DNA of 64,000 nucleotides from Breoghania sp. L-A4 (lineage in GTDB: Bacteria; Pseudomonadota; Alphaproteobacteria; Rhizobiales; Stappiaceae): NCBI RefSeq assembly GCF_003432385.1, contig NZ_CP031841.1, forward strand, positions 4,944,501 to 5,008,500. The letters are read 5' to 3'. Positions 36,311 to 61,481 of this stretch are shown here, one piece after another. The first letter of the stretch is position 1. Each line of letters opens with the position of its first letter. The translations under genes and the position numbers were made by a program. The notes below the pieces were generated by a model. The model was not told where the DNA came from. It worked only from the letters and a program-made list of their open reading frames with translations, and made no database searches.

Positions 36311-37215
36311 TCATTTTCGTGCCATCAGCCAGTCGATCATCGCCGCGCAGAGTGCGCCCCGAGCGACCTCATCGAAGGCGGCGAACATCGGCCCGGAATT
36401 GACCTCCATGAATCGCAAATCGCCATCGTCTGCGGTCTTCAGATCGAAGGCGCAGAAATCGAGACCGAGATCGGCGGCAAGCGCGGCGAGTTTTTTCGCA
36501 AGCAGCCCGTCAAGCGCGCTCGCACCGCGATAGACAATGCTGTGATTGCGCCCTGCGCGGTAGTCGAGATCATCGGAAACGATTTCGAAGACATGGGGCG
36601 CGCTGCCGACGAAAAAGACGCGCAATTCGGGGTAACGCAGCTTCTCCTGCACGAAAGCAGGCACCGGTGCGCGCCCATCATGCCAGTCGGTTTGTGCGTC
36701 CGCCGCGGTTGCATCCAACGTATAGGCGCCACCGGCGACCGGCTTGACGATCGCCGGACCCTCGGCCATCGCGGTTGAAAGCGTCTCGCGTTCGTTGGTG
36801 ACCCGGGTTTTCGGAATGGCGAGGCCATACGCGCGCGCTGCCGTCAGAATAAGGCTCTTGTGGCCGCAGGCGGCGCTCATGGTCCGGTTGAACTGACGGA
36901 TTGTGTCGTGTGACTGGCACCAGCCCCGAGCGCAGAGAACCACGCCTGCGCCCGGTCGATGGCGCCGGCGGCCTGCGGGACCGAGAAGACGTCGTAGCGC
37001 TGGAAGGCCGCGGCGCAGACAAGCGGCCTGCCTGCGACAGTCATCTCGCCCGTCTCCAGATCCCAGCTCAGCGCCGGTTCGCTTTCCGCGTCGTGCAGCA
37101 CGGCGTGAACCATCACGCCCGCCGTCCGGGCCGCGGCGGCGAGCGCATGCAAATTGGGATCGCGCGCGCCGCCGGATATCAGCAGCGCGCCGTCGTCTCC
37201 CGGTCTCACCGCCAT
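36311..37215 (-). CDS. Graspetide-type ATP-grasp ligase (frameshifted)
   Basis: An ATP-grasp ligase of the MvdC/MvdD-like group, predicted to join side chains of the adjacent precursor through ester or amide bonds. It is read here in two frames. Residues 1-~97 start at ATG 37215; the rest continues one base shifted from about 36923-36927, giving ~301 residues if one base is restored. A Lys-bearing strand AIVKPVAGG (~165) and the metal-binding LRFMEVNSGPMFAAFD (~275) match ATP-grasp ligases of the microviridin/graspetide type. Its ATG directly abuts the precursor stop (TGAATG), so the two are translationally coupled. The break is at a GGGGC run and could be a sequencing error. Confidence 0.82.
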
Positions 37216-38137
37216 TCAGCGGCGCCCGAAGGGATTGCGGAGGCCCAGGTCGGCCAGCCAGTTTTCGCCGAAGGGCGGCTTGGGATCGTCGACCGTGGGG
37301 CTTGTCTCGCCCACGGGTGATTTCTCCTCGCCAACGGCAAACGTCGTCGGGCCTTCTTCACCAAACGCCGGCGTGGTGCCCCACCCTCCTCGCCGAACGC
37401 CAATGTCGTGGGATGCGGCCCCTCCTCACCGAGCGCCAGTGTCGTGGGGTGCGGCCCCTCTTCGCCGAGCGCCAGCGTGGTCATCTGGGGGCCTTCTTCC
37501 CCGATCGCAAGCGTGGTGGGGCCCTCCTCACCGAAGACCAGTGTGGTGACGGGTCCGCTTTCCTCCCCAGCGCCAGCGTGGTCACAGCGCCCTGGCGGCC
37601 GCCATCTTCCTCGCCGGTGGCCATGGTGGTCGGCCCGCCGCCATCCTCCTCCCCCGTGGCCATGGTCGTGGGCCCGGCGCGGGAGCGCTGGGCCGCAAGC
37701 CCTTCCTCCTCGCCTGTGGCCATGGTGGTGAGATCACCGCCGTCTTCTTCACCGGTCGCCATGGTGGTGACACCGCCGGCCTCCTCGCCGATGGCGAGCG
37801 TGGTGGGTCCTGGCCCCGCCACGCCCAGGAAGCGGATCATGTCGTTGGTGCGGGAGAAGACGCGCACCGCAACAATTCTCTCGACGTCCTTCTCGACGAC
37901 GAGAACCGCGCAGATGGGCGTGAGCACGGGCAGGGAGATCTCCGATGGCGGCTGGGCCACGAACTCCAGATCGAGGATGCCGTCGGGTGACAGCGTCTTT
38001 TCAAGCGGCACCAGCGCGGGCGCGCTCCAGTCCGATGAGGTGGTCAACCCGTGCGCAGTGACGACAAGTTGCGGCGGATTGGTCTTGTTCAGATGCAGGG
38101 TGAGATCGACGATCGCATAAATCTTCATCTTCGCCAT
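37216..38137 (-). CDS. Multi-repeat graspetide precursor with TTxxxxEE motifs (two frameshifts)
   Basis: A leftward gene starting at ATG 38137 behind a strong GGGAGG site. With one base restored at 37565-37568 and one at 37379-37382 (both CCCC on the plus strand) it encodes ~307 residues. Residues 1-~111 are a non-repetitive, beta-rich region. Residues 112-272 hold 13 TTxxxxEE motifs (TTLAIGEE, four TTMATGEE, TTLALGEE, TTLVFGEE, TTLAFGEE, TTPAFGEE, TTFAVGEE and repeats), separated by Gly/Pro-rich linkers. A ~35-residue tail ends in PFGENWLADLGLRNPFGRR. TTxxxxEE is the core motif of plesiocin-type graspetides, in which Thr and Glu side chains are joined by ester bonds. No cysteine-rich or signal sequence is seen. 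Confidence 0.85.
37324..37804 (-). repeat. Tandem repeat tract encoding 13 TTxxxxEE units
   Basis: Coding repeats of 24-60 bases inside the graspetide precursor. Repeats 2-5 (GCCATGGT-rich on the plus strand, 37605-37770) encode identical TTMATGEE cores and look like the youngest duplications. Repeats 6-13 encode hydrophobic TT-L/P/F-x-x-GEE cores; 9 and 10 are nearly identical, with the same GPHP linker. Unit length varies through the linkers, so this is coding repetition, not a fixed-length satellite. Confidence 0.85.
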
Positions 38138-38498
38138 GGAAAACCTCCCGAATACACAATTCAAAAAAGTGCCAGATGTGAAAATGAACAACTCACTCTA
38201 CGTCAATTTTGAGTTTCGGACAACAGCGCGAAGCAAGGCGGCACGCACAGGCCCAACGCAACTGTTGCAGCAAGGCGTTGATCTTACAAAAGTATTGATG
38301 GGCGGAAGCAACACCTCCAGAATCTCGTCCTCCCGCGCGCCGGGTGCAATCCTTCCGGCGTCGATGCAGGACGCCCGAAATACGCGCACGGCCCTGTCCA
38401 AGGCGCCGCGTCAGGCCGCACGCGGCGCTGCCGCATTCCCGCTCTCGTAAAATTTACCATCGCGGCCCGCGCGCCGGCGACGGAAAATTAAGCCACGA
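38138..38498. other. Divergent intergenic region between graspetide precursor and flippase
   Basis: About 360 bases, less GC-rich than its flanks near 38150-38220. For the leftward precursor a TTGACG hexamer (complement of 38201-38206) lies ~65 bases before the ATG and could be a -35, though no good -10 follows at 17 bases. The rightward flippase promoter must also be here. No further gene is supported. Confidence 0.4.
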
Positions 38499-41154: not shown

Positions 41155-41481
41155 CGGGTTCACTGTGCTCCATGCGGCGCGCCGCCTGGCGGGCGAAGGC
41201 GCGGGGCAAGTTCCGCACACGCCGCCCCTCCTTCGAGACGCGCGCGGTGCCAGTCCCCTCTCCCATTGGGAGAGGGTTAGGGTGAGGGGATCAGATGCCT
41301 GAGAAATACTGAGGGATCACAACCCCTTGCATGTTGTTTCCAGCGCAAATCGGCGATGATTTGTGCTGGCCGCGTGCGGATGGCCATCCGCACGCGGCCG
41401 GATCGGCGGGGCCGCGATCCCCTTGGTCGAGACCCGTGGGTGAGCCTGGTCCGCCGATCCCTTTGCGCCTGTTCTGAACAG
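41155..41481. repeat. Intergenic region with a perfect 9-bp hairpin left of the IS110 element
   Basis: About 330 bases. CCCTCTCCC / GGGAGAGGG (41256-41276, 3-base spacer) is a perfect palindrome and is followed by GGGTTAGGGTGAGGGG. A near copy lies to the right of the IS at 42546-42566. Just upstream, CTTCGAGACGCGCG is shared with the extragenic repeats at 46.2-46.4 kb. No gene is supported here. Confidence 0.6.
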
Positions 41482-42473
41482 ATGATTGGGAGCCAGACCC
41501 GCATGCAAGGCCAGATCCAGCCGCAAACACCCGGCGCACAGCCAGTCTACGTCGGCATCGACGTCTGTAAAGACCATCTCGACATCCACCTGCATCCCCT
41601 CGGGCACGGCCTGAGGCTCGCCAACGACCGAGACGGCGTGAGCCGGCTGAAGCGGCTGCTGGCCCGACACGACGTCGCGCGCGTCGTGCTGGAGCCGACG
41701 GCCAGCTACCATCGGCTCGTCCACCGCTCGCTGGCCCAGGCCGGCTGGCCGGTGGCGGTCGTCAACCCGCTGCGCGCGCGGCTGTTCGCCGAAGTCCTCG
41801 GCAGCCGCGCCAAGACCGACCGCGTCGACGCGAAAATGCTGGCGATCCTCGGCGCGACGCTGGCCCCCCAGGCCACGCCGCCGGCGCCCGAAGCGCTCGA
41901 GGAACTGCGGGAGCTGGTGCATGCGCGCGCCGCCGCGACCCAGGAGCGCACCGCGCTCGCCAACCGGCTGACGGCCAGCCACGTCGCCGTCCTCAAGGCC
42001 GAGCTCAGGCGGCTGCTGGCCGGCCTCGACAGGCACATCGCGCGGCTGGCCCGCGAGATCGGGCGCCGCATCACCGACGATCCGGGGCTGGCGCGGCGCC
42101 AGGCCATCCTCACCTCGATCCCCGGCATCGGCGCCACCGTCGCCGCCGTGCTGATCGCCGACATGTCCGAGCTCGGCCAGCTCGACCGCCACGCCTGCGC
42201 CAGCCTGGCCGGCGTCGCCCCCTCGCCAACGACAGCGGCGACATCCGGGGGCCGCGCCACATCAGGGGCGGCCGCGCCATGCCCCGCCGCGCGCTCTATT
42301 GGGCAGCGCTGTCCGCCGCCAGGTACAATCCCGACCTCGCCGCCTTCTACAAACGCCTGCGCGACAACGCCAAAAAACCCAAGGTCGCCCTCACCGCCGT
42401 CATGCGAAAGCTCATCATCCTCGCCAACACCCTGCTCAAGGAGGACAGACTGTGGACCCCAAAATACACTTGA
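41482..42473 (+). mobile_element. IS110-family insertion sequence, degenerate
   Basis: Coordinates cover the transposase; true element ends are not defined because IS110 elements usually lack terminal inverted repeats and target duplications. The region between palindromes at 41256-41276 and 42546-42566 is the outer limit. IS110 elements often target palindromic repeats, which fits this setting. GC and codon use are like the host, so the element is not recent foreign DNA by composition alone. Confidence 0.75.
41482..42473 (+). pseudogene. IS110-family transposase, one frameshift
   Basis: A DEDD-type transposase of ~330 residues, starting at ATG 41482 or 41503. The N-terminal DEDD catalytic domain shows YVGIDVCKDHLDIHL, LEPTASYHR and SRAKTDRVDAKML. 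The C-terminal transposase_20 domain begins TSIPGIGATVAAVLIADM. After ~residue 246 (SLAGVAP, CCCCC at 42218-42222) the frame shifts by one, and IRGPRHIRGGRAMPRRALY to LLKEDRLWTPKYT continues in the other frame. Restoring one base makes the protein full length. Confidence 0.85.
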
Positions 42474-60186: not shown

Positions 60187-61481
60187 TCAGCGTGCGGACG
60201 CATCCAGCACGTCGTCGAACGAGCGTAACCCGGCTTCCGGCGCGTTGACCAGAACCGCCATGTTGCCCGGCGCGTGCTGGTTCTTCCACATTTTCGTGTG
60301 CGCCTTGGGGATCTGCGCCCAGGGGAACACCTCGCTCATGCACGGGTCGATGCGGCGCTCGATCATCAGCTTGTTGGCGGCGGCGGCCTGTTTGAGATGC
60401 GCGAAATGCGATCCCTGGATGCGCTTTTGGTGCATCCAAACGTAGCGCGCATCAAAGGTGATGTTGAAGCCCGTGGTGCCGGCGCAGAACACCACCATGC
60501 CGCCGCGCTTGACCACGAATGTGGAAACCGGGAAGGTCTGCTCGCCCGGATGTTCGAAGACGAAGTCGACATTGACCCCTTGCCGGTGATGTCCCAGATC
60601 GCCTTGCCGAACTTGCGCACTTCGTTGAACCAGGTCTTGTATTCCTCGGAATTGACCTTCGGCAGCGGCCCCCAGCAGGAAAAATCCTTGCGGTTGATGA
60701 CGCCCTTGGCGCCCAGGCTCATGACGAAGTCACGCTTGTCCTCTTCCGAGATGATCCCGATGGCGTTGGCGCCGGCCGCCGCGCACAGCTGGACGGCGAA
60801 GACGCCCAGTCCGCCGGAGGCGCCCCACACCAGCACGTTGTCGCCGGGCCTGATGATATGCGGACGATGCCCCCACAACATCCGGTAGGCGGTGGCCAGC
60901 GTCAGCGTGTAGCAGGCGCTTTCTTCCCACGTCAGATGCTGCGGCCGGTGCATCAGCTGGCGCGCCTGCACGCGGGCGAATTGCGCGAACGATCCGTCCG
61001 GCGTCTCGTAGCCCCAGATGCGCTGCGAGGGCGAGAACATCGGATCGCCGCCGTTGCACTCCTCGTCGTCGCCATCGTCCTGATTGCAGTGGATGACCAC
61101 CTCGTCGCCGACCTTCCAGCGTCGCACCTTCGAGCCCACCGCCCAGACGATGCCCGAGGCGTCCGATCCCGCGATGTGATAGGGGCTCTTGTGGACGTCG
61201 AAGACGGAAATCGGCTCGCCCAGACCGGCCCAGATGCCGTTGTAGTTGACGCCGGCGGCCATCACCAGAACCAGCACCTCGTCGTCGGCGATCTCCCAGG
61301 TCGGCAGCACCTCGAGCTGCATGGCCTCTTCCGGCGGACCGTGCCGCTCGCGGCGGATCGCCCAGGCGTGCATCTTCGCCGGCACATGACCCAGCGGCGG
61401 GATCTCGCCGATGTCGTAGAGATCCTTGAGTTCGGCCTTGGGGACCGGACGTGTTTCTTCGGCTTCAACGATTGCTGACAT
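60187..61481 (-). CDS. ccr: Crotonyl-CoA carboxylase/reductase (one frameshift)
   Basis: A medium-chain dehydrogenase that reduces and carboxylates crotonyl-CoA to ethylmalonyl-CoA, the committing step of the ethylmalonyl-CoA pathway. It has ~431 residues if one base is restored at 60576-60579 (CCCC on the plus strand), near the normal ~430. Before the break: FDVHKSPYHIAGSDASGIVW, HCNQDDGDDEECNGGDPM and VWGASGGLGVFAVQL. After it, in another frame: VKRGGMVVFCAGTTGFNITFDARYVW and HAPGNMAVLVNAP, each spread over the C-terminal third. The start has AAAAGGAAC upstream. As written it is truncated after WDITGKG. Confidence 0.9.

What the first reader, a model, noticed from the sequence alone, without database searches (positions are those of the whole stretch)
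36311..38137. Candidate graspetide (plesiocin-type) biosynthetic locus in an alphaproteobacterium
Seen: a precursor with 13 TTxxxxEE motifs sits directly upstream of, and translationally abuts (TGAATG), an ATP-grasp ligase with VKPVAGG and FMEVNSGPM motifs. Known: in plesiocin and related graspetides, ATP-grasp ligases join Thr and Glu side chains of TTxxxxEE units through esters, giving hairpin-like protease inhibitors. Inferred: this pair makes an ester-crosslinked multi-hairpin product. No dedicated exporter or peptidase gene is seen next to it, so the product might stay in the cell or use a general route.
Basis: partly seen in the sequence, partly recalled or inferred. Interest (0 to 1): 0.93.

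Follow-up and report, generated by a model that had tools for sequence, protein, structure and literature searches.

The report
Plesiocin-type graspetide pair, C-terminal tag
This locus carries a two-gene recipe for a protein whose tail of 13 short repeats is probably stapled into small hairpins by a plesiocin-type enzyme; unusually, its likely enzyme-docking tag sits at the very end of the tail and its front is a folded domain, and the genes look broken probably only because of sequencing errors.

Summary
The 13 TTxxxxEE units, TGA|ATG junction and ATP-grasp motifs are present, but only when three frames are read together: both genes carry apparent one-base frame breaks at GGGG runs. All five non-junction frame changes in the window, one in a core metabolic gene, fall at G/C homopolymers, so assembly error is likelier than decay. 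Its front is a ~108-residue beta-sandwich that also occurs alone; relatives put the repeats behind unrelated front ends (DUF6174, RTX, PrcB_C, Nif11, GG leader, or none); and in the window's type the constant extra is a C-terminal PFG. RPFG is the reported recognition tetrapeptide of the fuscimiditide leader, which still works when moved C-terminally, so this looks like a natural 'follower' design. Crosslinking, follower role and protease inhibition are inferred; an AlphaFold model did not show the tag docking. Verdict: new variant of a known kind.

The parts
38144..38149 (-). Ribosome-binding site GGGAGG of the precursor gene
   Evidence: Sequence
37216..38137 (-). Graspetide-type precursor gene, about 307 residues when its three frames are read together
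   Evidence: Frames; frame segmentation; homologous unbroken precursors in L035-L037
37814..38137 (-). N-terminal ~108-residue beta-sandwich domain of the precursor
   Evidence: Shared with L034-L038 and stand-alone L053; model with best pLDDT 86.6
37324..37804 (-). Array of 13 TTxxxxEE units (core)
37219..37236 (-). C-terminal NPFGRR, candidate ligase-recognition follower
   Evidence: PFG at 0-4 residues from the C-terminus in 8 of 8 precursors of this type; about 3 of 1706 control ORFs
37213..37218 (-). TGA-ATG junction of precursor stop and ligase start
36311..37215 (-). PsnB-like ATP-grasp ligase gene, about 301 residues in two frames
37565..37568 (-). GGGG run with frame change 1 (precursor)
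37379..37382 (-). GGGG run with frame change 2 (precursor)
36924..36927 (-). GGGG run with frame change 3 (ligase)

Best explanation
A two-gene graspetide module of the plesiocin (PsnB/TTxxxxEE) kind. The ligase activates the Glu side chains of each TTxxxxEE unit with ATP and closes two esters onto the two Thr of the same unit, giving a chain of up to 13 ring-within-ring hairpins carried behind a folded beta-sandwich domain. The ligase probably finds its substrate through the C-terminal PFG element (a follower) rather than an N-terminal leader. The hairpins most likely act as a multivalent serine-protease inhibitor, as plesiocin does; with no dedicated exporter or leader peptidase seen, the tail probably stays on its carrier domain. 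Shown here: gene pair, repeats, ligase kinship, domain architecture, conserved C-terminus. Inferred: esterification, follower role, inhibitor function. The frame breaks are most likely sequence errors, so the pair is probably intact.
For: 13 units far above chance; ligase profile hits PsnB at 2.7e-33 and a model of the L035 ligase returns PsnB first; catalytic and substrate-arginine positions invariant in 18 ligases; 17 of 18 homologous loci have an adjacent TTxxxxEE precursor; family ligases lie on one side of a branch, 88/92; PFG C-terminus in 8 of 8 precursors of this type, including leaderless L039 and the PrcB_C-type L041; RPFG is the reported recognition tetrapeptide of fuscimiditide and works C-terminally (PMC13003496); breaks confined to homopolymers.
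Against: No direct chemistry. The window copy is broken as sequenced. The PFG tail is not confidently placed in a tethered AlphaFold model (pLDDT about 36-45). Ten family members (Thiotrichaceae, Bacteroidota, Nif11 types) lack a PFG end, so recognition must differ there. L038 keeps the ligase with almost no TTxxxxEE units. Identity to PsnB is only about 30% over 187 aligned residues.
Confidence: 0.8

Rival explanations
1. Same chemistry but ordinary leader logic: the N-terminal beta-sandwich domain, or a segment of it, is what the ligase recognises, and the C-terminal PFG is conserved for another reason such as protein stability or simple common descent.
For: All six precursors with this domain form one ligase clade; known graspetide ligases use N-terminal leaders (PMC8939145); no docking of PFG in the model.
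Against: The PFG end is shared by L039, which has no N-terminal extension, and by L041, whose front end is a PrcB_C domain; the beta domain exists alone in genomes without a ligase beside it.
Confidence: 0.4
2. This copy is a pseudogene pair: a plesiocin-type module that was acquired horizontally and is now inactivated by three real frame breaks.
For: Three breaks in 1.8 kb; absent from two congeners and about 35 family members; syntenic neighbours are unbroken.
Against: Every break in the window, including one in a crotonyl-CoA carboxylase/reductase-like gene, is at a G/C homopolymer; all 13 motifs and all family-invariant ligase residues are otherwise intact.
Confidence: 0.15
3. The ATP-grasp enzyme is a RimK-like ligase that adds glutamate to the EE-rich tail instead of forming esters.
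For: Weak RimK matches (Pfam 0.1; RimK_fam 9e-6).
Against: Graspetide ligases score far better than RimK (2.7e-33 to 2e-14 against 4e-5); the Thr pairs are kept as strictly as the Glu pairs, which glutamylation would not need.
Confidence: 0.04

Closest known systems
Plesiocin (PsnA2/PsnB), group 2 graspetide of Plesiocystis pacifica
   Same: TTxxxxEE repeats as substrate; PsnB is the closest solved relative of the ligase; precursor next to ligase
   Different: 13 units (plesiocin is described as having four hairpin-like repeats, title of reference 22 in PMC8939145); folded beta-sandwich domain in place of a leader peptide; conserved C-terminal PFG; about 30% ligase identity over the aligned part
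Fuscimiditide/amycolimiditide (ThfA/ThfB), RPFG leader recognition and engineered C-terminal leader (PMC13003496)
   Same: A PFG-containing recognition tetrapeptide; a recognition sequence placed C-terminally to the core is tolerated
   Different: There PFG lies in an N-terminal leader in nature and the C-terminal placement was engineered; Thr-Asp crosslinks; an O-methyltransferase partner that is absent here
Microviridin ligases MvdC/MvdD (MdnB/MdnC)
   Same: Same ATP-grasp superfamily and fold
   Different: Scores far below the MvdC/MvdD cut-offs (33 of 425 and 32 of 475 bits); different core motif; no PFFARFL leader
GRASP_SAV_5884 (TIGR04187) ATP-grasp peptide maturases
   Same: Best NCBIfam model for all 18 family members
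   Different: 59 of 350 bits, so not a formal member

Membership tests
Graspetides (omega-ester RiPPs) | ATP-grasp ligase of the peptide-maturase branch encoded next to the precursor | tested here: met
   PsnB 2.7e-33 and other graspetide ligases about 1e-15; TGA-ATG junction
Graspetides (omega-ester RiPPs) | Ester or amide crosslinks between Thr/Ser/Lys and Glu/Asp side chains | not testable with these tools
   Needs mass spectrometry
Plesiocin type (group 2) | TTxxxxEE core motif | tested here: met
   13 units
Plesiocin type (group 2) | PsnB-like ligase | tested here: met
   Best solved relative by profile and by fold; tree places PsnB next to the family without resolving the order
Plesiocin type (group 2) | Short N-terminal leader peptide recognised by the ligase | tested here: inconclusive
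   N-terminus is a ~108-residue beta-sandwich domain, not a short peptide; recognition itself is untested
Plesiocin type (group 2) | Serine-protease inhibition | not testable with these tools
   Assay needed; known for plesiocin from PMC13097080
MvdC or MvdD family (NCBIfam equivalogs) | Curated score cut-off | tested here: not met
   33 of 425 and 32 of 475 bits
GRASP_SAV_5884 (TIGR04187) | Curated score cut-off | tested here: not met
   59 of 350 bits

The most novel reading that the evidence does not exclude
A family of graspetides in which the crosslinked repeats are a tail grafted onto unrelated folded carrier proteins, and in which, in the window's branch, the ligase is recruited by a natural C-terminal PFG follower, the arrangement that was engineered for fuscimiditide and of which I found no natural graspetide example in the papers held.
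Probability: 0.4. Interest if true: 0.72.

Novelty: new variant of a known kind. Interest (0 to 1): 0.55.

Why it matters
If the PFG tail is the recognition element, nature already uses the follower design that graspetide engineers built, and proteins ending in a TTxxxxEE tail plus PFG could be stapled at their C-terminus inside cells. The exchange of N-terminal domains suggests these crosslinked tails are appendages of working proteins rather than released peptides, which changes what function to look for.

Tried and rejected
Docking of the tail: AlphaFold of the L035 precursor tail plus ligase, read through the TGA, gave pLDDT about 36-45 for the tail; no support, though the tether is only a few residues. 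Fold of the N-domain: only marginal matches to NigD-like domains (Foldseek E 0.8; Z 7.5, under the tool's trust limit), so no function is drawn from it. Plasmid search with a homologous ligase: one distant Streptomyces hit whose small upstream ORF has neither TTxxxxEE nor PFG. Viral contigs: one 26% relative, not followed. PDB search with the repeats found no peptide chain. No held paper contains TTLALGEE, or DUF6174 together with ATP-grasp. The key classification papers (Lee 2020, Ramesh 2021) are not held, so whether this clade was already listed as group 2 could not be checked. An attempt to widen the sample in other families failed because only G handles can be centres. A first tree with a mis-framed L034 row was replaced.

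Full report
Observation. On the minus strand from 38137 to 36311 lie two genes. The first begins at ATG 38137 behind a ribosome-binding site GGGAGG and ends in TGA directly followed by the ATG of the second (37218-37213). Read in all frames, the first contains 13 TTxxxxEE units; the same residues shuffled give 0.10 units on average and at most 2 in 20,000 trials. The second carries the KPVAGG and EVNSGPM ATP-grasp motifs.

Correction. Neither gene is a single open frame. The frame changes near 37568, 37382 and 36927, each at a GGGG run. A frame segmentation of the whole window found five frame changes that are not gene junctions: these three, one in an IS110-type transposase at a CCCCC run (42219), and one at a GGGG run (60576) in a gene that I read as crotonyl-CoA carboxylase/reductase from its sequence. 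Syntenic housekeeping genes compared with two congeners are unbroken. Since every break is at a G/C homopolymer and one hits a core metabolic gene, uncorrected sequencing error is the likelier cause; real inactivation of this copy remains possible (about 0.15).

Ligase. Single-sequence searches give GRASP_SAV_5884 (3e-16), MvdC (3e-8) and MvdD (9e-8), all well below their curated cut-offs. A profile of 18 family members hits PsnB, the plesiocin ligase, at 2.7e-33, other graspetide ligases at 6e-16 to 2e-14 and RimK only at 4e-5. A model of the L035 ligase returns PsnB chains first. Residues invariant in the family include the KPxxGG lysine (K158), R199, D218 and R220 (a DxR pair), E271 and N273. 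R199 aligns with residue 233 of the 7drm chain; if that construct carries a 20-residue tag, which I infer, this is PsnB Arg213, which I recall as the arginine reported to hold the acidic core residue.

Relatives. One scan of bacterial genomes found 18 loci with a homologous ligase (31-45% identical), in alphaproteobacteria, Thiotrichaceae, Bacteroidota, Gemmatimonadota, Cyanobacteriota, Myxococcota and Bdellovibrionota. In 17 of the 18 an adjacent precursor carries at least two strict TTxxxxEE units; the exception is L038. The family's ligases lie on one side of a branch (88/92) against other alphaproteobacterial ATP-grasp enzymes. The window groups with two Rhodobacteraceae (96/90) inside a clade of six whose precursors all share its N-domain (98/92). 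The pair is absent from two congeners and about 35 members of its family and single-copy in its genome. No exporter or peptidase gene is evident beside it or in the eleven neighbourhoods listed, read by eye; L036-L038 share one location, with a glutathione-reductase-like or related gene on one side and a DAHP-synthase-like gene further along, so the pair can also be inherited in place.

Architecture. The precursor is not a short leader plus core. Residues 1-108 form a domain shared with L034-L038 and predicted as a beta-sandwich (best model pLDDT 86.6, the other four 45-78). Stand-alone homologues exist in other proteobacteria (L053, L065-L067), and some with signal-peptide-like starts lie near fabD- and ribosomal-protein-like genes (L069-L071). 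Elsewhere the same TTxAxGEE repeats follow a DUF6174 domain (L042, L044), DUF6174 plus RTX repeats (L040), a PrcB_C domain (L041), a Nif11-like leader (L049, weak in L051), a GG-type leader (L043), or nothing (L039, L050). In the window's type the constant element outside the repeats is the C-terminus: PFG ending 0-4 residues from the end in 8 of 8 precursors (window, L034-L039, L041). No shuffle of the same tails gave more than 3 of 8, and about 3 of 1706 control ORFs have it.

Mechanism. In fuscimiditide the leader tetrapeptide RPFG was identified as a key recognition sequence, and the leader still works when moved to the C-terminus (PMC13003496). I therefore propose that PFG here is a natural follower that brings the ligase to the tail, and that each TTxxxxEE unit receives two Thr-Glu esters as in plesiocin. 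PMC13097080 states that plesiocin is a potent serine protease inhibitor whose potency rises with the number of cyclised motifs, so a 13-unit tail would be a multivalent inhibitor. Full modification would remove 26 waters, about 468 Da. Esterification, recognition and inhibition are inferred. An attempt to see docking in a tethered AlphaFold model gave no support (tail pLDDT about 36-45), and family members without PFG must be recognised otherwise.

Known or new. The chemistry and the ligase type are known (plesiocin, group 2). The folded carrier domain, the exchange of N-termini, the 13 units and the C-terminal PFG make it a new variant. The main classification papers were not available, so prior listing of this clade as group 2 cannot be excluded; Makarova 2022 (PMC8939145) describes recognition motifs in N-terminal leaders in the sections read. 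Searches for 'follower peptide' with 'graspetide' returned only general RiPP papers.

Noticed in passing
window 60197-61470 (-): A gene that reads as crotonyl-CoA carboxylase/reductase is split by a frame change at a GGGG run near 60576, a sign of homopolymer errors in this assembly.
   Followed up: partly
window 41474-42444 (+): IS110-type transposase with a frame change at a CCCCC run near 42219, four genes from the locus.
   Followed up: partly
L038:5324-6007: Precursor keeps the beta domain and the NPFGGR end but has lost nearly all TTxxxxEE units while its ligase is retained.
   Followed up: no
L041:5043-5995: A Myxococcota MAG precursor also changes frame inside its TTxxxxEE array; cause unknown (assembly error or repeat instability).
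   Followed up: no
L040:3960-5453; L042; L044: In Thiotrichaceae the TTxxxxEE repeats follow a DUF6174 domain, once together with RTX calcium-binding repeats typical of type I secretion substrates.
   Followed up: partly
L069-L071: Signal-peptide-like proteins carrying a relative of the beta-sandwich domain, conserved near fabD-, rpsF- and rpsR-like genes; function unknown.
   Followed up: no
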